64,000 nt of DNA from Bacteroidota bacterium (lineage in GTDB: Bacteria; Bacteroidota; Ignavibacteria; Ignavibacteriales; Ignavibacteriaceae). Positions 40,426-57,511 of this stretch are shown here, piece after piece (position 1 is the first letter of the stretch; every line of letters starts with the position of its first letter). Location: assembly GCA_020161395.1 (NCBI GenBank), contig JAIUOE010000009.1, forward strand, positions 78,457 through 142,456, in the 5' to 3' direction. The translations under genes and the position numbers were made by a program. Under the pieces are notes generated by a model, which saw nothing but the letters and a program-made list of their open reading frames with translations, made no database searches and was not told the DNA's origin.

Positions 40426-40459
40426 AAAAGAGGCTGTCTCATTCGGGGCAGCCTCTTTT
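40426..40459. terminator. bidirectional terminator
   Basis: AAAAGAGGCTG (40426-40436) pairs with CAGCCTCTTTT (40449-40459), 11 bp with flanking A and T tracts, between convergent genes ending at 40406 and 40481. Confidence 0.85.
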
Positions 40460-48839: not shown

Positions 48840-48909
48840 TGAAAACCTCGCTGAAAATTATCTCCCACCTCTTCAGGTCGATAGCCTGCTTAACATACCC
48901 CCTTCCATA

Positions 48910-49158
48910 TTAAAAATATTTTTGAGATCTCTTGACATTAATTACAAAAATTTGTAATTTAACTCCAGGATATAATTAAACACGGGAGAGTAATGTAAAC
49001 GCAGGAAATATAACAAACGGCACAAAAATTGTCCGGTTATTACAAGTTATCCGGCAGGATGTTCCAGGATTTTCTTCGGGCCCTTTTAGAGCAAATATTC
49101 TATCGTAATGTACCTTCCACACCCTGTAGAGAACCACACGGCGGTTCTTCTCCGGGAA
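48910..49158 (+). repeat. 249-bp promoter/leader repeat, copy 1
   Basis: This segment aligns without gaps to 55047-55295; I count about 18 differences in 249 positions by hand. About 75 bp (roughly 49022-49096, from ACAAAAATTGTCCGG to GAGCAAAT) are identical. Inside are hairpins around AATTGTCCGG, ATCC/GGAT (CCGGCAGGAT) and GAGAACC/GGTTC near the end. It lies 96 bp before a secreted-protein gene and has no ORF. It may encode an RNA or be a shared 5' leader. Confidence 0.8.
48932..48960 (+). promoter_or_regulatory. sigma-70-like promoter in repeat copy 1
   Basis: TTGACA (48932-48937), 17 bases, then TAATTT (48955-48960). The boxes are near consensus for the classical -35/-10 form, and the arrangement recurs in copy 2. 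The spacer contains the inverted repeat ATTACAAAAATTTGTAAT. Confidence 0.6.
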
Positions 49159-49254
49159 TCCTTTACAAAACCAATTCTGATACACGGTGACATTTTAAGC
49201 AATTAAGATGCCTTTAAGCCATTGTTTAGATACTTAATCTTTTTGGAAAATAGT

Positions 49255-50844
49255 ATGAGTAAATACCTTAAATCGTTGAGAATACTACCCTGTTTGGTTT
49301 TATTGTTGAGTTTCACTGCGGAGGCCCAGTTTGATTCTGTAATCTTTGTAAAAAAAGCTCCCTACTGGAATGAAGCTGTGATCTACATGGGTGACCAAAA
49401 CGATGACGGGTATGATGACTTTATCCTTTGCGTTCAGGATGCAAATGTAGGTCCAAATGGTTACGCAAATTTTTATTATGGAGGTAACCCTGTTTCCTCC
49501 ACCTCTGCGTTGAAATTTCCTTACTATGCTCCAACCACCACCACTGCCTGTGATGTAAATAGAGACGGTTACAGAGATTTAGTCGTCCAAAGAAGAGGCA
49601 ATGTTAAACCACAAATTATAGATATTTATTATGGCGGTCCTGAGATTGATACAATATCTGATTTTTCATTCTCCTGGATCGACAACATCTCCGATTTAGT
49701 AGAAATGATGGGACATAATTGGCCCATTGATTTCGACGGTGACGGATTTGAAGACTTTGTTTGTATAAGTGGATACAATGTCACCTCAGGATTTCTAAAT
49801 GACAGAATATATTTTTTTAGAACAGACAGTCTCATGACAACCCAAGCATATCACAAAATTGAATTGTTCCCGGATCAATCGTACCAAATAAAGCGGTCGT
49901 ATACAAGTTTTGCTGATATTGATGGTGACAGAAAGACTGATATTAGTATCGTTTTGGGTAAATATTCTGCACCGACAGCGGCACCTGAACGCAAGGTTCG
50001 CTTTTATTATGGGAATACAGATTTCGATTTTAATGGTTTTTACGAAATAACCGATACCATGGCATATGTGGATCATACCTATTTAATACAAGACCTTAAC
50101 AATGACGGTAAAGGAGAGATAATCTTCAATAATCCGGGAACGCATCCTGATTGGTATTCGGATGTTTTTTCATTTGGTACCCGACCCCCAAACTTCACAG
50201 TGGAGCAGGGGATCAATACGCAAAATTACCCTTGGGCTGCGGCTTTTTCACCCGGCGATATAAATGCCGATGGATGTAATGACATGTTACGCCACCTGCC
50301 TTATTATATAATGAATCTCTATCTTGGAGGATACCCAATGCAGGAAGAGAGGACCAAAGTCTATTCGTCTTCGTCTTCGGGTATTTATCGAATAAATTTT
50401 GGAGGTAGGATTGGAGATGTGGACGGTGATGGAGTTGATGACATATGTATCGGTGAAAACGGAGGTACTGATCATACAGGAACCAACCAACCCGGTAATA
50501 TTTACATAATAAAGGGGACAAGAAGTCCTGTTTCAGTAAAAGACGAGGCTGCACCCGAAACAACTGAATCTCAGTTAACTCTTAATATATCTCCAAATCC
50601 AACCTCCTCAAGTTTAAATATCACATACACTCTTCCCTTCGAAGGGGAAGTAGATATAAGTATTCACGATATAACAGGTAAAAAAGTTTACGCCACCACC
50701 CAAATTGAGAATATTGGCGAACATGCATTATTTGTTGATATTTCAAAAATAGTAAAATCATCAGGTGTCTATATTTTAACCATAGAATTACATCAAGGTG
50801 ATAAAAGTGTATTAAAGAGTTTGAAACTTCAGTTCTTGAAGTAA
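49255..50844 (+). CDS. T9SS-secreted FG-GAP/VCBS propeller protein
   Basis: ATG 49255 begins a proper signal peptide (KYLKSLRILPCLVLLLSFTAEAQ); the open frame from 49222 adds 11 residues. The 529-residue protein has seven FG-GAP-type repeats with calcium-binding DxDxDG loops, for example DQNDDGYDDF, DVNRDGYRDL, DFDGDGFEDF, DLNNDGKGEI and DVDGDGVDDI, as in integrin alpha-type propellers. A T9SS sorting domain closes it (from NISPNPTSSSLNITYTL to KLQFLK). Likely an adhesin-like surface protein. It follows leader repeat copy 1 and shares an operon with the gene at 50880. Confidence 0.88.
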   Translation: MSKYLKSLRILPCLVLLLSFTAEAQFDSVIFVKKAPYWNEAVIYMGDQNDDGYDDFILCVQDANVGPNGYANFYYGGNPVSSTSALKFPYYAPTTTTACDVNRDGYRDLVVQRRGNVKPQIIDIYYGGPEIDTISDFSFSWIDNISDLVEMMGHNWPIDFDGDGFEDFVCISGYNVTSGFLNDRIYFFRTDSLMTTQAYHKIELFPDQSYQIKRSYTSFADIDGDRKTDISIVLGKYSAPTAAPERKVRFYYGNTDFDFNGFYEITDTMAYVDHTYLIQDLNNDGKGEIIFNNPGTHPDWYSDVFSFGTRPPNFTVEQGINTQNYPWAAAFSPGDINADGCNDMLRHLPYYIMNLYLGGYPMQEERTKVYSSSSSGIYRINFGGRIGDVDGDGVDDICIGENGGTDHTGTNQPGNIYIIKGTRSPVSVKDEAAPETTESQLTLNISPNPTSSSLNITYTLPFEGEVDISIHDITGKKVYATTQIENIGEHALFVDISKIVKSSGVYILTIELHQGDKSVLKSLKLQFLK

Positions 50845-50879
50845 AGGGAAAAAACTACAACAAAAAAAAGGAATGCGCT

Positions 50880-53800
50880 ATGAAAAAGGCTGCATTAATC
50901 ATACTTCTTTTAACAGGAATGTTCTTTGGACAGGACAGACCTCGTCCGGGAATTGATTATTTCCCGCATACAGGCTTTTTCGACTTTGTCGTTAATGCCC
51001 TGAGCCATCCATGGGATGGTACAACCTCTACATCGCTAATTTCGGAGTATAACTCTAAAGGGTGGTATCTTGATTCACTTAAAGATCTTGGGTTGACCAA
51101 CATCGTTACCGACGGTCAATACCATCTTGATAATCTCCAATCCTTAAGACATTCATTTTTCTTGAATGATATGGGATTTCAATGGAAAAACAAAACCTGG
51201 GCTAATCCTCCCGTAATATTCACTCCTGCAGAGTACCTGAATTCCCTTGGGCATGATGTAAAGGATTATCCGCTTGAATTTGGAGGCGATATAGCAGGCT
51301 CAATTAATAAACTTAATAATTTTGGCTTCACCACAGCAGGCGGTTCAGGCACCTGTTATTGGGGTATGCAACCGAATTATCAACCACCGCTGGATGCTAC
51401 AGGGGCGAATATTGATGAAACTATTAATACTACTCTACACAGTTCAAGATACTCTAAAGTTAACTCGCACGATCGGGGTGTAATGTTATGGGGAGTTCTC
51501 CCATGGACACAACTTGCTGATCCAAGCCTGTGGTACAAAATGAGGATTTATCTTCGGATGGAGGATGTCCCGACAAATGAGGAAGAGATTTTTACCATCA
51601 ATATCAGTAATTGGACAGGAAACACAGATGATCCTCAACTTGAATTAAGGCGGGATTATTTTCGGCAAATAGCGGCACAAACAGGACCAATTGGTTTAAC
51701 ACAGGTTGTGATGAATACCGCTATTACTGATACAAATGACTATGTCTGGTTTGAATCAAATGCATTTCAGGTTAGTCAGGATATGGATCTCGGATTTTAT
51801 ATCTACTGGCATGGTAACGCAAGTATTTACATCGATAAGATTACTTTTGTCAGTACACAATTCGCGGAGCTGTATGTTGACTCAACAATAAGTGTTGATG
51901 AAATAGCTACTACATTATTTAACCGCTATCCGAATGGCGATTTAACGAATACGAAATTTCAAAGCTTCTATGCAGATGAACCATTTCAACTATCGGCACT
52001 TTACAGGAAAGAACTTCAATCTAAAATATACCAAAAAGCAACCTCGGTTAATGCTACAACATTGGAGTTAAATGGAGCGACCGGAGGTGTTCCGGCTTAT
52101 TTTCTTGAGTTTGAACGAAATTATGCAAAGCCGGTAGGAGAAGAAGCTAAGCGATCAATTATTTACAACATTTACCCCATAGATGCCAATACCACAATTG
52201 GTCAGACAAGCATTCAGCACAGACTGGATGTTCTGATAAATTACGGAAACTTTGGTGAATCAGAAGATTATCAATTCTCCGGACTAAAAAGAGCTCAGAT
52301 GGCTGCCCAAAACTTTACTCTTGATATTCAATCCGACGATATTCCTCTGATCTTTACCATGGGCGTACATTCAGAACAATATGTTACGGGTTCGCCAGGT
52401 TCACCGGTTTATGTCTCAGGTCCACATTCGAGGAGAGCCCCAACATGGAGTGAGATATTTGCTCAAGGGAATTTAGCTTTGGCTTATGGTGCTAAGGGAT
52501 TTATGTATTATATGATCCCTACCAGGGCAAAACCACCTGTTCTAAAATTCAATCCTAATCTACAACAATACTATTATGACACAGTTTGGAATACTTATGG
52601 CTTATTTGATGCAGCAGGTGAAGTTTATGATACTTCTCATTCAACGATGAACGGAAGTGTACAACACCCTGAATACAATCAGATTAAAAACAAAAGATTT
52701 TTTGCGGTTAAAAGTTTCATATCCTCGATCAAACCAATTGAGTCAACGCTTTTGGGATTGAGGTGGAAGGATGCAAAAAGTTGGCATGATAACTCCTCAT
52801 GTTCAGAAAATTGGATTGCTAATGTTTCCACCCGATATCCTTATTTTGGAAAAGACGATGATTCAAACAAAACATTTGTGGAAACAGGTTATTTTGTTGA
52901 AAAATCTCCCCCTTCCGGGAAAATTGAGGATGCAAAATTCATTTATCTGGTAAACAGAAGGTGCAATCTCCAACCTGAGAATTCACCCGATAACCTTGAA
53001 GAATATGCGGATACATCATGCAGAAATGTAAGATTTTATCTCAATTTCCCTAATTCAACCTGGGATTATTACACAGTTACAGATTTAAAAACTGACTCTG
53101 TGTATTTTACAACCAAAACAGGTGCAGTTACGATTTTCCTTGGTGCAGGAGAGGGAACCCTGTTAAAGATTGAACCACAGATTACAAATATTACACAAAA
53201 TGATACTCTTGGTTACAACACAACATTTTACAGTGACCTGACAGTATCTAATAATGCAACACTTACCATAACCGGGGGCACAACACTGACTTTTAAGAAT
53301 CATTCACGGCTTATCCTCTCCAATGGAAACCTGAATGTTGTCGGTACGGCTCAGGAACCGGTAGTGTTCGACTTTGTTGTCCCTTATTGGCAATCCACTC
53401 AAAACGGAATTGTTAACAACAATGGAAATGTCGTGTTAAATCATGCAAGGATCAAAAACGCGGGAATTGGTTACTACTCATATACCACTGATAATGATGA
53501 CATTCAGAATTGCGAAATATTCAACAATTATTGGGGAATAGTGATGCATTGGACTCACAGTTATGGTACCGAGAAGGCAAAGATCGTTAACTGTAACATT
53601 CACGACAATGCAACCTGGGACAATCAGGGAAGAGGAATTACGCTATCGAATTCATCCCCAAAGATATACGCCACCACTATCAGAAAAAATGATTACGGCT
53701 TATACTGTGTAACAAATTCAAACCCCTATGATACAACTGACGAGATCAACAGTTACAACTTAATCGACAGCAACGATGTTGGAATAATAACTCTTAACTC

Positions 53801-54914
53801 ATCACCGATGCTTGGTTATGTGGATAATGATCAAGGAGGTATCCTGATATCCGGTGGTGGAAACACGATCAAAAATAATTCCATATTCAATGTGATGGCA
53901 GATACCAACTGCAATGTCTATGTGGAACGGAATTACTGGGGGACAAAAGACCCGGCATTGTTTAACATATATTCAGTCACCGGCAGTATAGTCTATACTG
54001 ACTATTATCTGGATGATCCGCCAACAGGATCGATTTACTCGGGATTGGCAAGTAAAGTAGCCATGAAGATTGACGATGAGTTGATATCACAGAGTCAGGG
54101 GAGGTTCACATCGGGCGGAGGACATAGTTTGTTAAGAGCGGCAAGGAAACAGATAAGACAAGGAAACATGACTGCAGCAAGGGCAATATTACTTCCGTTG
54201 ATCAACAACCCGGAAAACATGCAAATGTCATGTGAAGCATTGGAGATATACGGTAAAACCTATAGCCCCGGAGACATCGAAAGTTACTTCTCGGTTCTTC
54301 AAACGGTTGGCAACCGGCCTGTTAAAAACGATCTTACGGCAAAGGCTCTGTTTTTGCTTTCGGAATATCAGATAGACAGAAAAGAAACTCACCTGACAAA
54401 CCTGATATCAGTTTATCAAGGAACTGACCATGCAGCAAGGGCATCTTATCTGAAAATCATTCACCTGATTGGAGAAGGAAACCGGGACGAAGAGATTGAT
54501 GCTCTCAAAAATGATATGAACAGATTATATCCATTGAGTTCATATACAAAAGAAGTAAATTACATTCTTACATCGGGCACGAATATGATGAAACCTTCAA
54601 CGGTAACATCAACAACCGAGACTTTACCTTTAGAGTACCAACTCTTCAATAACTTTCCCAACCCGTTCAACCCTGAAACGATGATAAAATTCTCGCTAAA
54701 AGAGAGAAGCAGTGTAACCCTGACGGTTTACAGCATCACGGGGCAGAAAGTTGCAGAACTCATAAGCGGTGAAATGGAGAAAGGGTTCTATGAGGAAAGG
54801 TTTGATGGTACAAATCTTTCTTCAGGTGTTTATGTAATTCGTTTGAATGCCCAATCGCTTGAACATACAGGCTCCAATTACAGCAAAACGATGAAAGCTT
54901 TGCTCCTTAAATAG
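50880..54914 (+). CDS. giant T9SS-secreted protein with beta-helix and helical repeats
   Basis: The 1344-residue protein has a signal peptide (MKKAALIILLLTGMFFGQ). Residues about 20-760 form a novel-looking region with some resemblance to a glycosidase-like barrel (FYADEPFQLSALYRKEL and GFMYYMIPTRAKP), but no catalytic pair can be named. About 770-1060 is a right-handed parallel beta-helix (NNGNVVLNHARIKNAGIG, GGGNTIKNNSIFN, VERNYWGT). About 1070-1230 is helical, TPR-like (QGNMTAARAILLPLINN). The last 90 residues are a T9SS sorting domain (NFPNPFNPETMIKFSL to MKALLLK). Predicted surface protein. It follows the FG-GAP gene by 35 bp and is followed by a terminator. Confidence 0.86.
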   Translation: MKKAALIILLLTGMFFGQDRPRPGIDYFPHTGFFDFVVNALSHPWDGTTSTSLISEYNSKGWYLDSLKDLGLTNIVTDGQYHLDNLQSLRHSFFLNDMGFQWKNKTWANPPVIFTPAEYLNSLGHDVKDYPLEFGGDIAGSINKLNNFGFTTAGGSGTCYWGMQPNYQPPLDATGANIDETINTTLHSSRYSKVNSHDRGVMLWGVLPWTQLADPSLWYKMRIYLRMEDVPTNEEEIFTINISNWTGNTDDPQLELRRDYFRQIAAQTGPIGLTQVVMNTAITDTNDYVWFESNAFQVSQDMDLGFYIYWHGNASIYIDKITFVSTQFAELYVDSTISVDEIATTLFNRYPNGDLTNTKFQSFYADEPFQLSALYRKELQSKIYQKATSVNATTLELNGATGGVPAYFLEFERNYAKPVGEEAKRSIIYNIYPIDANTTIGQTSIQHRLDVLINYGNFGESEDYQFSGLKRAQMAAQNFTLDIQSDDIPLIFTMGVHSEQYVTGSPGSPVYVSGPHSRRAPTWSEIFAQGNLALAYGAKGFMYYMIPTRAKPPVLKFNPNLQQYYYDTVWNTYGLFDAAGEVYDTSHSTMNGSVQHPEYNQIKNKRFFAVKSFISSIKPIESTLLGLRWKDAKSWHDNSSCSENWIANVSTRYPYFGKDDDSNKTFVETGYFVEKSPPSGKIEDAKFIYLVNRRCNLQPENSPDNLEEYADTSCRNVRFYLNFPNSTWDYYTVTDLKTDSVYFTTKTGAVTIFLGAGEGTLLKIEPQITNITQNDTLGYNTTFYSDLTVSNNATLTITGGTTLTFKNHSRLILSNGNLNVVGTAQEPVVFDFVVPYWQSTQNGIVNNNGNVVLNHARIKNAGIGYYSYTTDNDDIQNCEIFNNYWGIVMHWTHSYGTEKAKIVNCNIHDNATWDNQGRGITLSNSSPKIYATTIRKNDYGLYCVTNSNPYDTTDEINSYNLIDSNDVGIITLNSSPMLGYVDNDQGGILISGGGNTIKNNSIFNVMADTNCNVYVERNYWGTKDPALFNIYSVTGSIVYTDYYLDDPPTGSIYSGLASKVAMKIDDELISQSQGRFTSGGGHSLLRAARKQIRQGNMTAARAILLPLINNPENMQMSCEALEIYGKTYSPGDIESYFSVLQTVGNRPVKNDLTAKALFLLSEYQIDRKETHLTNLISVYQGTDHAARASYLKIIHLIGEGNRDEEIDALKNDMNRLYPLSSYTKEVNYILTSGTNMMKPSTVTSTTETLPLEYQLFNNFPNPFNPETMIKFSLKERSSVTLTVYSITGQKVAELISGEMEKGFYEERFDGTNLSSGVYVIRLNAQSLEHTGSNYSKTMKALLLK

Positions 54915-54969
54915 GGCTGAGGAATGAAGGTTGATGGCTGAAAAGCCCGCACAAGAATGTTAAATTATT

Positions 54970-54997
54970 AAGGCTGTCTCGAGAGGGTCAGCCTTTT
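54970..54997 (+). terminator. terminator after module 1
   Basis: AAGGCTG (54970-54976) pairs with CAGCCTT (54989-54995) followed by TT and A-rich sequence. The loop TCTCGAGAGGGT nearly matches that of the hairpin at 56913-56934. Confidence 0.7.
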
Positions 54998-55046
54998 AAA
55001 ATATCTATGGTGAAATAAATTTCAATTATTGGTGTAATAACTCATG

Positions 55047-55295
55047 TTAAAAATATTTTTTAGATCTCTTGACATTAATTACAATAATTCGTAACTTATT
55101 ATCAGGATATAATTAAACACGGGAGAGTAATGTAAACGCAGGAAATAAAATAACCGGGACAAAAATTGTCCGGTTATTACAAGTTATCCGGCAGGATGTT
55201 CCAGGATTTTCTTCGGGCCCTTTTAGAGCAAATAATCTATCGTATCGTACCTTCCTCACCCTGTAGAGAACCATATGGCGGTTCTTCTCCGGGAA
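55047..55295 (+). repeat. 249-bp promoter/leader repeat, copy 2
   Basis: Direct-orientation copy of 48910-49158, same length, about 93 percent identical by hand alignment. Here the central hairpin is better formed: AATAACCGGGACAA pairs with TTGTCCGGTTATT, one bulged G, around AAA (about 55147-55177). It lies 126 bp before a lipoprotein gene. Most differences from copy 1 fall outside the identical core. Confidence 0.8.
55069..55097 (+). promoter_or_regulatory. sigma-70-like promoter in repeat copy 2
   Basis: TTGACA (55069-55074), 17 bases, TAACTT (55092-55097), at the same offset as in copy 1. The -10 box is slightly weaker than in copy 1. Confidence 0.5.
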
Positions 55296-55421
55296 ACCTG
55301 CTGTTTATAAACATCCCCCTGATTTAACTCTTAATAACTCATGAACAATCTATTATTTATATAAATTGTCGTAGAGTAACCGGATTGTATTCCGATTGTA
55401 CATCTTAATCAATGGTTTAGC

Positions 55422-56711
55422 ATGAAAATGTTTTATATTTTGTTTCTTCTGGGTTTAGGATTATTTACGAGCTGTTCAGAATCGCCGACCGATAATGAGG
55501 TAGAAAAACCTGTTCTTACAGTTGACGATATGTCATGCACGGAAGGTTGGCTTAATCTGTCCACTCCTCCGGAGATGTTACCTGCACAGGTATTGCTACT
55601 GCAGGATAACCAGACAGTTATGTCCATTACGGTGGTAACTACTGATACGCTTTTGTACATACCCACTCTTACCCATTCCAAAGTTTATGTTTTTCAGGCA
55701 TCAATAACTCCTCCCAACAATTCCACAATATTTTCCAATGTAACAAATCTTACCACACTTTCACCCACCGGCAATTCCTTTAGCCGTACCAAGCATTACC
55801 TCGGGAGTACAAATATCAACTATAGTTATGTAAATGATATTGCAATAATTAGTGAGAATGATATCTGGGCTGTTGGTCTGTTCGTTCTTCCTGATACCAA
55901 TCTTTCAGGTTATTTAGACTACAATGCAGCACATTGGGATGGAACGGGATGGGAATATAAAAGAATTTGGTATGAAGTACCCGGAAATTTTCTTGCAGTA
56001 CCTGAAATTACCGGAATATTAGCTTTTACCAATAATAATTTGATGTTGTTTAGTACTTTTGGTGTGACCTGGTATGATGGGACAACACAAATCCGTTCTG
56101 AAAAACTTCCATTGGCTACAGCAAATGTCTGGGGAAGCGATAGCAATAATATTTATGCCGGAGGTTATGGTGGCAAAATATATCACTACAATGGAACAGT
56201 CTGGACCCCTATTGAAACTGGAACTGATTTGTATGTAAACAACATTTATGGTGATTATAATAAAAGAACAAAATCTTATGAAATACTTGCCGTTTGTGCC
56301 GAATATTCTCTTGGCTTTACTTCAAAGATATTTAAGATAGAGGGCCAAAAGGCAACAGAAATAAGCAAACAAGGAATTTCAGATTTCGTTTTGAGAGGCT
56401 GGCTTTATCCAGGTAAAAAAATATTTGTTGTTGGTGATGGAATCTATTTTAAGGATATGAATGATTCAGAATGGAGCAAAGAAGAAGATCCAAATTTGAT
56501 AACAATTTACTGCATAAAAGGAACCCGTCTAAATGATATATTTGCGGGTAGCACATACGATAGATTGTTTCATTTTAATGGAATTGAATGGAAAAAGTTG
56601 TTTCCTGAAAATCCCAATTCATCCTACGGTAAAATTAAAATAAAGAACAATATCGTTGTGGCAGCTGGATCAGATGGAAATCAGGGATTGGTAACAATTC
56701 TTAAAAGATAA
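55422..56711 (+). CDS. propeller-like lipoprotein
   Basis: The 429-residue protein has a lipoprotein signal (MKMFYILFLLGLGLFTSC, lipobox Cys18), then SESPTDNE, so it is lipid-anchored. An Ig-like domain (about 32-115) is followed by a propeller-like region (about 125-425) with units such as NDIWAVGLFVLPD, NNIYAGGYGGKIYHYNG, DRLFHFNGIEWKKLF. The motif IYHYNGTVW is typical of a group of Ignavibacteria and Bacteroidota lipoproteins often mislabelled glucosyltransferases; no transferase motif is present. It follows leader repeat copy 2. No T9SS tail, which is expected for a lipoprotein. Confidence 0.82.
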   Translation: MKMFYILFLLGLGLFTSCSESPTDNEVEKPVLTVDDMSCTEGWLNLSTPPEMLPAQVLLLQDNQTVMSITVVTTDTLLYIPTLTHSKVYVFQASITPPNNSTIFSNVTNLTTLSPTGNSFSRTKHYLGSTNINYSYVNDIAIISENDIWAVGLFVLPDTNLSGYLDYNAAHWDGTGWEYKRIWYEVPGNFLAVPEITGILAFTNNNLMLFSTFGVTWYDGTTQIRSEKLPLATANVWGSDSNNIYAGGYGGKIYHYNGTVWTPIETGTDLYVNNIYGDYNKRTKSYEILAVCAEYSLGFTSKIFKIEGQKATEISKQGISDFVLRGWLYPGKKIFVVGDGIYFKDMNDSEWSKEEDPNLITIYCIKGTRLNDIFAGSTYDRLFHFNGIEWKKLFPENPNSSYGKIKIKNNIVVAAGSDGNQGLVTILKR

Positions 56712-56732
56712 AATTTAATTAAAGGAGGTCTT

Positions 56733-56852
56733 ATGTTTCATCCGCCTTAGAAGTTTTGCATCGGAAATATTTTACTTTAAATTTAATTAATGAATTCATT
56801 AAAATATCATTCTCGATTAATGGAAACGATGAAAGCTTTGCTCTTGAAGTAG
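56733..56852 (+). pseudogene. fossil of a T9SS-cargo gene, interior deleted
   Basis: A near-perfect ribosome site AAAGGAGGTC lies before ATG 56733, but the frame stops after five codons (56748-56750). About 75 bp later, 56826-56852 encodes TMKALLLK and a stop, matching the end of the T9SS protein at 50880-54914 (TMKALLLK). So only the start signal and the last codons of a cargo gene seem to remain, followed by a terminator-like hairpin as in module 1. An insertion of copied DNA is an alternative explanation. Confidence 0.5.
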
Positions 56853-56912
56853 TCCCGATTCTCGTGAAATTCATTCGGGGGTCGGAAACCGAAAACTACA
56901 ACTAATTTATAC

Positions 56913-56934
56913 GGCTGTCTCGAGAGGGGCAGCC
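56913..56934 (+). terminator. terminator-like hairpin closing module 2
   Basis: GGCTG (56913-56917) pairs with CAGCC (56930-56934) with loop TCTCGAGAGGGG, nearly the same loop as at 54970-54995. It lacks a following T tract, so it may be a decayed terminator. Confidence 0.45.
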
Positions 56935-57183
56935 TGCCATTTCAAAAAGACCTGTGTGTTATGCATCAAGTTTATATTTTTGCATTGTTTTTGCTTTAAG
57001 TAATTGTTAGTTTTGCAGTCCATTTATGAATGTTTATATTTTTTATTGAAAAGAGTGAACGAACCGGTAGTTACACCGCAAGTGTGAGGGATAAGACATG
57101 AAACCGGCAATTTCCTTTATTTTGAGATTGCCTGAAGATTAATCGCGAAATGTGTAAAAGCACGAATACTAAAGTTGCTTTAA

Positions 57184-57300: not shown

Positions 57301-57326
57301 GTTTCCCCCTCACCTAACTAAACCTT

Positions 57327-57359
57327 GCCCGTTTATCCTTCGGGGTGACGGGCTTTTTT
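57327..57359 (+). terminator. intrinsic terminator, plus strand
   Basis: GCCCGT (57327-57332) pairs with ACGGGC (57348-57353) around a loop containing CCTTCGGGG, followed by six T (57354-57359). No intact plus-strand gene precedes it; it may have served the fossil at 57184-57300. Confidence 0.75.
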
Positions 57360-57511
57360 ATGTCATCAGAATACCGGTGGTTAAAAAGAAATCTGCTAAG
57401 AGCGGTTCCACCGGTCAGATAAAAGGGAATTCTTAAGTCTCGAACGATTTTCAGCACTCCATCCTGTAGGGGGTAGAGGTTCTCCGTGTAAAACTTTTCT
57501 GACGAGTTCAT
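57358..57511 (-). pseudogene. truncated AbiEii-type nucleotidyltransferase toxin
   Basis: From ATG 57511 on the minus strand the frame reads FYTENLYPLQDGVLKIV and IPFYLTGGTALSRF, then HRYSDD: the nucleotidyltransferase start with GG(T/S) and the first catalytic acids. Homology breaks off right after SDD, where the plus-strand terminator at 57327-57359 begins, and the frame runs into it and stops at 57314. About three quarters of the toxin is missing, so it is dead. An N-terminal fragment is all that remains of a second AbiE-like toxin in this window. Confidence 0.75.

What the first reader, a model, noticed from the sequence alone, without database searches (positions are those of the whole stretch)
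48910..56945. Duplicated module: same 249-bp promoter/leader ahead of two sets of secreted-protein genes
Two direct copies of equal length (48910-49158 and 55047-55295), about 93 percent identical by hand, each start with a TTGACA-N17-TAA(T/C)TT promoter, contain an invariant core of about 75 bp with hairpins, and precede genes for exported proteins. Both modules end in a T9SS-type tail (TMKALLLK) and a hairpin with nearly the same loop. The core is more conserved than a simple leader needs to be, suggesting a functional RNA, a protein-binding leader or a recombining cassette boundary. The promoter is of sigma-70 form, unlike the TAnnTTTG boxes elsewhere in the window.
Basis: partly seen in the sequence, partly recalled or inferred. 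Interest (0 to 1): 0.72.

Follow-up and report, generated by a model that had tools for sequence, protein, structure and literature searches.

The report
Swappable front ends for secreted-protein genes
Two copies of one 250-base front piece sit before genes for predicted secreted proteins in this bacterium, and in its close relatives related gene bodies carry either of two such front pieces, so the piece is likely an exchangeable on-switch and export tag that would let the cell reshuffle what it puts outside.

Summary
The repeat is real: 231 of 249 bases match, with a 76-base identical run. It is one of nine "leader I" copies, all in this genus: 4 in the own genome, 4 and 1 in two relatives, 0 in a fourth; a model finds no others in 80 family and 391 class genomes. 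Seven of nine run on to the start of an FG-GAP/T9SS-tailed gene (A); the other two, orthologs, precede a predicted lipoprotein.

The "extra conservation" argument fails: between orthologous sites leaders differ at 8-10%, flanking noncoding DNA at 1.3%. RNA covariation does not exceed shuffles.

What is there is modular exchange. An unrelated leader II precedes six other A genes. Leader types change five times on the A-passenger tree; one leader-I clade is rejected (AU p 9e-74). One passenger carries leader I in one species and II in another, the change lying at the end of the signal peptide. One site holds different cassettes in two species; three are occupied in one only. Best reading: portable expression-and-export front ends of a recombining cassette family.

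The parts
48906..49162 (+). Leader I, copy W1 (core unit)
   Evidence: 257-nt direct repeat, 92%; 4 copies in genome, 9 in genus
48932..48960 (+). Promoter-like TTGACA-N17-TAATTT (weak; predicted)
   Evidence: TTGACA kept in 7 of 9 copies; promoter scan of region at chance level
49022..49097 (+). 76-nt run identical in W1 and W2
   Evidence: 53 of 76 positions invariant in all nine copies
49122..49156 (+). Hairpin at the 3' end of the leader core (predicted); leader homology breaks just after it in W2
   Evidence: fold; breaks at GGAAACCT in W2 and in G003 C4
49163..49254 (+). Leader I 3' part up to the start codon; present in 7 of 9 copies and, without the core, before one further A gene (G003 C4)
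49255..50844 (+). Gene A: FG-GAP protein with T9SS sorting tail (529 aa); N-terminal signal peptide predicted by eye
   Evidence: Pfam FG-GAP_3, FG-GAP, Por_Secre_tail; TIGR04183
50880..54914 (+). Gene B: 1344-aa predicted exported protein with T9SS sorting tail, rest without a confident family
   Evidence: Por_Secre_tail; no PDB sequence match at E 0.1
54886..54914 (+). Shared tail block (TMKALLLK stop)
   Evidence: 29-nt repeat, 90%
54970..54997 (+). Intrinsic terminator AAGGCTGTC...CAGCCTTTT (predicted by eye)
   Evidence: not in the list of the terminator scan; stems of this kind lie at cassette junctions
55043..55299 (+). Leader I, copy W2 (core only)
55422..56711 (+). Predicted lipoprotein gene (429 aa), no family; divergent patch 55931-56160
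   Evidence: no Pfam/NCBIfam/PADLOC family; patch 75 of 230 differences against 2.9% and 3.8% on its two sides
56824..56852 (+). Stranded tail block (TMKALLLK stop) outside any listed gene
   Evidence: lipoprotein stop at 56711
56913..56934 (+). Terminator-like stem closing module 2

Best explanation
The repeat is one of two kinds of front piece (likely promoter and 5' untranslated leader, running on into the predicted signal peptide in most copies) that recur before a multi-copy family of genes with T9SS sorting tails, and it likely works as an exchangeable expression-and-export front end whose shared sequence would let gene bodies be swapped by recombination. Shown by sequence comparison: units are built of leader, signal peptide, variable passenger, sorting tail and terminator; the ends recur while the passengers differ; related passengers carry leader I or II; some chromosomal sites hold different cassettes, or none, in sister species; leaders and tail-terminator blocks are more divergent between orthologous sites than their noncoding neighbours. 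Inferred: that the leader is transcribed and drives expression, that exchange runs through ordinary homologous recombination on the shared blocks (tail 29 nt, terminator stem 22 nt, leader about 250 nt), and that the benefit is a changing repertoire of surface or secreted proteins. Module 2 of the window likely arose when a lipoprotein gene took the place of an A-B interior, leaving the leader core in front and the tail block and terminator behind.
For: Nine leader-I copies, 7 before A genes. Leader II before 6 A genes and one A/B deletion remnant. Window versus G003 at the same site, in 150-nt bins: upstream flank 94-99% identical, downstream flank from 57.0 to 60.4 kb 91-99%; gene A 44%, first half of B 46%, second half 17% divergent. 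Leaders 26/252 and 21/252 differences against 9/668 in flanking noncoding DNA (Fisher p 5e-9 and 9e-7; intervals chosen). The tail-terminator block of window module 1 is 95% identical over 109 nt to that of G003 module 2, while the spacer after B differs from its own ortholog at 34 of 132 sites; alignment. Site 2: flanks 96-97% identical, leader II with passenger beta in G000, leader I with passenger alpha in G003; alpha also lies at another site of G000 (91% nt), beta at another site of G003 (89%). Sites 3, 4, 5 occupied in one species only. G000 C21 and G003 C2 carry one passenger (90% over 1411 nt) with leader II and I, the change lying at the end of the signal peptide. Passenger tree of 19 genes: 5 changes between leader I and II among 13 genes; the leader I label is no more clustered than shuffled labels (5 changes, shuffled mean 5.8, 176 of 500 as low; leader II 292 of 500); leader I as one clade against leader II is rejected, AU p 9.4e-74.
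Against: No transcript data, so promoter and UTR are predicted. Eight of nine leader I copies come from two genomes. Some site differences could be differential loss from ancestral tandem arrays (G003 has such an array at C1 1059-1074 kb) rather than insertion. No recombinase was looked for or identified. In the leader, 6 sites of the 5' part and one at the 3' end group by position, only 3 in the core group by genome and 2 cross, so exchange is patchy, and W2 is closest to its ortholog (93%). The side of site 5 away from the recQ-like gene shows no terminator at the junction. Two copies (G003 C1, G001) lack TTGACA. Several copies look decayed (stops in A or B). The tree tool warned of long branches meeting, and all three labels together (8 changes, 31 of 200 shuffles as low) and the no-leader label (14 of 500) show some clustering.
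Confidence: 0.72

Rival explanations
1. Differential loss: the ancestor held large tandem arrays of A-B cassettes with both leaders, and the sister species lost different members; no exchange between sites is needed.
For: A tandem arrangement exists (G003 C1 1059-1074 kb: A, A-B, A-B). In G003 site 2 leader I is cut at repeat position 37, right behind the neighbour's terminator, as a deletion would leave it. A deletion remnant joining A to B fragments lies at G000 C8 168 kb.
Against: Does not by itself explain one passenger with two different leaders, changing at the end of the signal peptide, the swapped tail-terminator block, or five leader changes on the passenger tree, unless deletion fusions are invoked each time.
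Confidence: 0.15
2. The leader core is a structured cis-regulatory RNA (riboswitch-like or protein-binding) kept by selection and copied with its genes.
For: Blocks such as ATGTAAA, CAAGTTA.CCGGCAGGATGT and GAGAACCA...GGTTCTTCTCCGG are kept in the G001 copy, which is 71-75% identical overall; hairpins can be drawn; the core stays in front of an unrelated gene in module 2.
Against: No Rfam match at gathering score, only chance-level ones below; z near 0; one two-sided pair of 45, reached by 199 of 500 shuffles; model not found outside the genus in 391 class genomes, under strict filters; leaders differ more than neighbouring noncoding DNA.
Confidence: 0.1
3. The repeat is a small mobile element (MITE-like) or the end of one, which inserts upstream of genes.
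For: Discrete module with a reused 3' break at GGAAACCT; a further element of about 110 nt (J) recurs at cassette borders.
Against: 14 of 16 leader copies of both kinds stand directly before an A-gene start, one of them an A remnant, which a free inserter would not do; no inverted repeat pair bounds both ends of either window copy.
Confidence: 0.03

Closest known systems
Allelic exchange and domain rearrangement among surface proteins of Porphyromonas gingivalis (PMC5266723; abstract and found passages seen)
   Same: Exported surface proteins, some with T9SS tails, whose variants form a mosaic unrelated to the strain tree
   Different: The passages seen speak of alleles and adhesin domains of known genes; here whole passengers change leader, signal peptide and chromosomal site, and the shared unit includes a noncoding leader and terminator
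Expression-site families with conserved 5' ends and variable bodies (pilin, vls, tprK, Hop/Bab proteins; recalled, no call)
   Same: Conserved promoter-leader-signal region with exchangeable body
   Different: No single expression site or silent store was seen; the copies have their own leaders; variation is seen between species, not shown within a clone
T9SS type A cargo proteins (Por_Secre_tail, PF18962 / TIGR04183)
   Same: A and B carry the sorting tail
   Different: The noncoding leader I matches no Rfam family; leader II was not searched there

Membership tests
T9SS type A cargo | C-terminal sorting domain above the curated cut-off in A and B | tested here: met
   A 36.7 bits, B 32.6 bits, cut-off 27; TIGR04183 34.8 and 28.9, cut-off 23
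T9SS type A cargo | Module-2 product carries the sorting domain | tested here: not met
   No family in the 429-aa protein; the tail block lies outside the gene
Recombining surface-protein gene family | Conserved ends around variable bodies | tested here: met
Recombining surface-protein gene family | Ends and bodies have different histories | tested here: met
Recombining surface-protein gene family | Switching seen within one clone or strain | not testable with these tools
   one genome per species held
Structured cis-regulatory RNA | Match to a described family | tested here: not met
Structured cis-regulatory RNA | Covariation beyond control | tested here: inconclusive
   no excess, but nine similar sequences give little power
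Insertion sequence / MITE | Terminal inverted repeats of the unit | tested here: not met
   searches list no pair that bounds both ends of the two window copies
Integron cassette | IntI integrase and attC sites | not tested
   no integrase or attC search was run

The most novel reading that the evidence does not exclude
This genus runs a dedicated shuffling system for secreted proteins: hairpin-ended leader cores, the signal-peptide junction and a terminator-plus-J border act as specific exchange points, so front ends, passengers and chromosomal sites are recombined independently, an antigenic-variation-like generator in Ignavibacteria.
Probability: 0.2. Interest if true: 0.8.

Novelty: new variant of a known kind. 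Interest (0 to 1): 0.55.

Why it matters
It shows a modular layout (leader plus signal peptide, passenger, sorting tail plus terminator) in which the noncoding front end is itself a reassorting unit. If confirmed in strains, it gives a sequence-defined place to watch how secreted repertoires turn over, and it warns that a conserved leader repeat need not mean a functional RNA: at this site the repeated blocks vary more than the other noncoding DNA compared.

Tried and rejected
Functional RNA: tested with folding, RNAalifold, pair counting, Rfam and a covariance model; not supported. Conserved peptide in the leader: each of six frames of the 189-nt core has at least one stop in each of nine copies; the best sense ORF (from ATGTTC) is open to the core's end in 5 of 9 and broken in 4; rejected. 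Similarity of leader I and II (a shared CCGGGAAAC word) was judged by eye to be chance; not tested further. AlphaFold of residues 22-700 of B gave mean pLDDT 41.6 and was not used; no fold search was made. No PDB sequence match of B. Literature: listings only, (4 papers; 15 of 499; 12 of 120; none found); only PMC5266723 was opened (abstract, passages). None of the titles listed names such leaders; most of the hits were not listed.

Counts that left rows out: one search found 44 A-like matches in 4 genomes; 24 went into the upstream comparison and 19 into the passenger comparison and tree. Left out of the 24 were fragments, weaker matches and two long G003 genes for which no locus came; left out of the 19 were three contig-cut genes (G000 C8b, two of G002) and two distant G001 genes. 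In the tree G003 C4, which has only the 3' part of leader I, was labelled leader I. Searches with the model over more than 40 genomes used stricter filters; the 391 class genomes were drawn from a larger group. A DNA search of 80 family genomes also gave two 29-30-nt matches in other genera, taken as trivial.

Full report
OBSERVATION. The two copies are as described: 231 of 249 bases identical, longest identical run 76 nt, full repeat 48906-49162 and 55043-55299. The own-genome search (G000, 4.07 Mb, 21 contigs) finds four copies: the two in the window and one near each end of contig C8. The four genomes of the genus hold nine: G000 4, G003 4, G001 1, G002 0. A DNA search of 80 family genomes adds only two 29-30-nt matches. 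A covariance model of the 189-nt core finds the same nine and nothing else in 80 family genomes and in 391 genomes drawn from the class (stricter filters in both).

WHAT FOLLOWS THE LEADER. In seven of nine copies the similarity runs past the core to the start codon and into the signal peptide of gene A, an FG-GAP protein with a T9SS sorting tail (for the window's A). Gene B follows A in three of the seven (window, G003 C3, G000 C8a; the last with stops), not in three (G003 C2, G003 C1, G001 C24), and one (G000 C8b) runs off its contig. In W2 and its G003 ortholog the similarity stops just after the terminal hairpin, at GGAAACCT, and a 429-aa predicted lipoprotein follows. In G003 C4 the opposite is seen: the 3' part of the leader starts at the same GGAAACC and the core is missing. 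So the core is a separable module with a reused 3' border. The tail block of module 2 (56824-56852) stands outside any listed gene, behind the lipoprotein stop at 56711; with the leader in front it looks like the frame of a lost A-B unit (inference).

CONSERVATION. The window was aligned with the orthologous stretch of G003 (L016). In 150-nt bins the upstream flank is 94-99% identical (the first, partial bin 92%), the downstream flank 91-99% from 57.0 to 60.4 kb. Pooled flanking noncoding DNA has 9 differences in 668 sites; leader W1 has 26 in 252, W2 21 in 252, the stretch after B 34 in 132, the stranded tail with terminator 34 in 116 (Fisher p from 9e-7 to 1e-22; the intervals were drawn after seeing the profile). 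Gene A differs at 44%, the first half of B at 46%, the second half at 17%. The repeated blocks are thus the most variable noncoding stretches compared, which fits exchange with non-allelic copies and not extra constraint. Site patterns in the leader are mixed: 6 sites in the 5' part and 1 at the 3' end group by position, 3 in the core group by genome, 2 cross. W1 is 95% identical to the C8a copy of its own genome but 90% to its ortholog; W2 is closest to its ortholog, 93%. The tail-terminator block of module 1 in the window (54886-54994) is 95% identical to that of module 2 in G003; the same type also stands at G000 C8b and C4 (94.5%; alignment).

RNA. Single-copy folds are as stable as shuffles (z 0.09 and -0.21). 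RNAalifold gives 45 pairs, one with a two-sided change; shuffles reach this in 199 of 500. No Rfam family at gathering score in the window, and only chance-level matches in the leader. With nine similar sequences this is weak evidence, but nothing favours a structured RNA. Conserved blocks in the divergent G001 copy allow some sequence-level function.

A SECOND LEADER. Comparing the upstream DNA of 24 A-like genes showed an unrelated leader II of about 340 nt before six of them. A genus search finds 7 long copies (G000 5, G003 2) and one 56-nt match in G001; the seventh long copy stands before an A fragment that runs into a B-like fragment (L015 8025-8590; B-likeness read by eye). By eye, leader II copies are themselves mosaics of two 5' and two 3' versions.

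REASSORTMENT. (i) Passenger tree of 19 A genes (signal peptide and tail columns left out): leader types I (7) and II (6) need 5 changes. Label I alone needs 5 against a shuffled mean of 5.8 (176 of 500 as low), label II 5 (292 of 500), no-leader 3 (14 of 500), all three 8 against 9.4 (31 of 200). Leader I as one clade against leader II is rejected (AU p 9.4e-74). The tool warned of long branches. (ii) G000 C21 (leader II) and G003 C2 (leader I) carry one passenger, 90% over 1411 nt, from fully identical stretches to a middle patch of 57-78%, while leader and signal peptide are unrelated; the match begins at codon 24 of the G003 gene, the end of the predicted signal peptide, and ends near the C-terminal tail. 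G000 C1 (II) and G003 C4 (I, 3' part) are a second such pair (78%). (iii) Site 2, between an ABC transporter and an FBPase gene: flanks 96-97% identical, but G000 has leader II with passenger beta and G003 leader I with passenger alpha. Alpha is 91% identical to the passenger of G000 C8a, beta 89% to that of G003 C1 1068 kb, both at other sites; the alpha copy of site 2 has a stop inside. (iv) Site 3 (behind a 278-aa gene without a Pfam family) and site 4 (behind fumarase) are occupied in G000 and empty in G003; site 5 (beside a RecQ-type helicase gene) is occupied in G003 and holds 247 nt of other DNA in G000. Sites 3 and 4 could be read on one side only because G000 contig C8 ends inside the cassettes.

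BORDERS. Junctions lie at terminator-like stems at site 2 (both sides), site 4 (the side read) and one side of site 5, typically GGCTGTC...GGCAGCC; the other side of site 5 shows none. At site 3 the junction is right behind a stop codon, at the start of an element of about 110 nt (J). J recurs upstream of leaders and downstream of cassettes, where it follows the terminator, in the same orientation as the cassette. In the 20 loci and the window given to it was seen only there; its genome-wide count was not tested.

MECHANISM. Most likely the shared ends give homologous recombination a foothold, so passengers move between front ends and sites. Shown: shared ends, different histories of ends and bodies, site differences. 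Inferred: transcription from the leader, RecA-type exchange, benefit of a variable secreted repertoire. Differential loss from tandem arrays may explain part of the site differences but not easily the leader switches.

NOVELTY. Exchange among surface proteins, T9SS-exported ones included, is described in Porphyromonas gingivalis (PMC5266723, abstract and passages). The listings showed nothing on leader-carrying cassettes in Ignavibacteria; two searches listed only part of their hits. I file it as a new variant of a known kind.

Noticed in passing
window 57314-57511 (-): A gene with a sub-threshold AbiEii (type IV toxin-antitoxin nucleotidyltransferase) match is only 65 aa in the window (21.6 bits, cut-off 22.5); G003 has a 233-aa AbiEii gene at L016 11748-12449, and the alignment shows 606 extra bases there.
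   Followed up: partly
window 55931-56160: Sharp divergent patch (75 of 230 differences) inside the lipoprotein gene, whose two sides differ by 2.9% and 3.8% from the G003 ortholog; looks like a replaced segment.
   Followed up: no
L101 9186-9293 and 5828-5911; L104 10905-11012 and 8606-8649; also L014, L107, L102, L106, L103, L018: Element J of about 110 nt beside cassettes, at both borders in L101 and L104.
   Followed up: partly
window 48993-48998 and 55130-55135: A start-stop word ATGTAA behind a GGGAG-like stretch; ATGTAAA is kept in all nine leader I copies.
   Followed up: no
G000 contigs C8 (both ends), C4 (both ends), C10 (start), C21: The assembly of this genome breaks inside or beside A-B genes, so their number may be underestimated.
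   Followed up: no
L019 2415-4748 (+) and 4929-5354 (-): In G001 the leader I gene A is followed by an MmeI-type methyltransferase gene and a Mutator-family transposase fragment.
   Followed up: partly
window 40432-40453: Another stem of the GGCTGTC...GGCAGCC kind away from the cassettes, so such stems are not limited to them.
   Followed up: no
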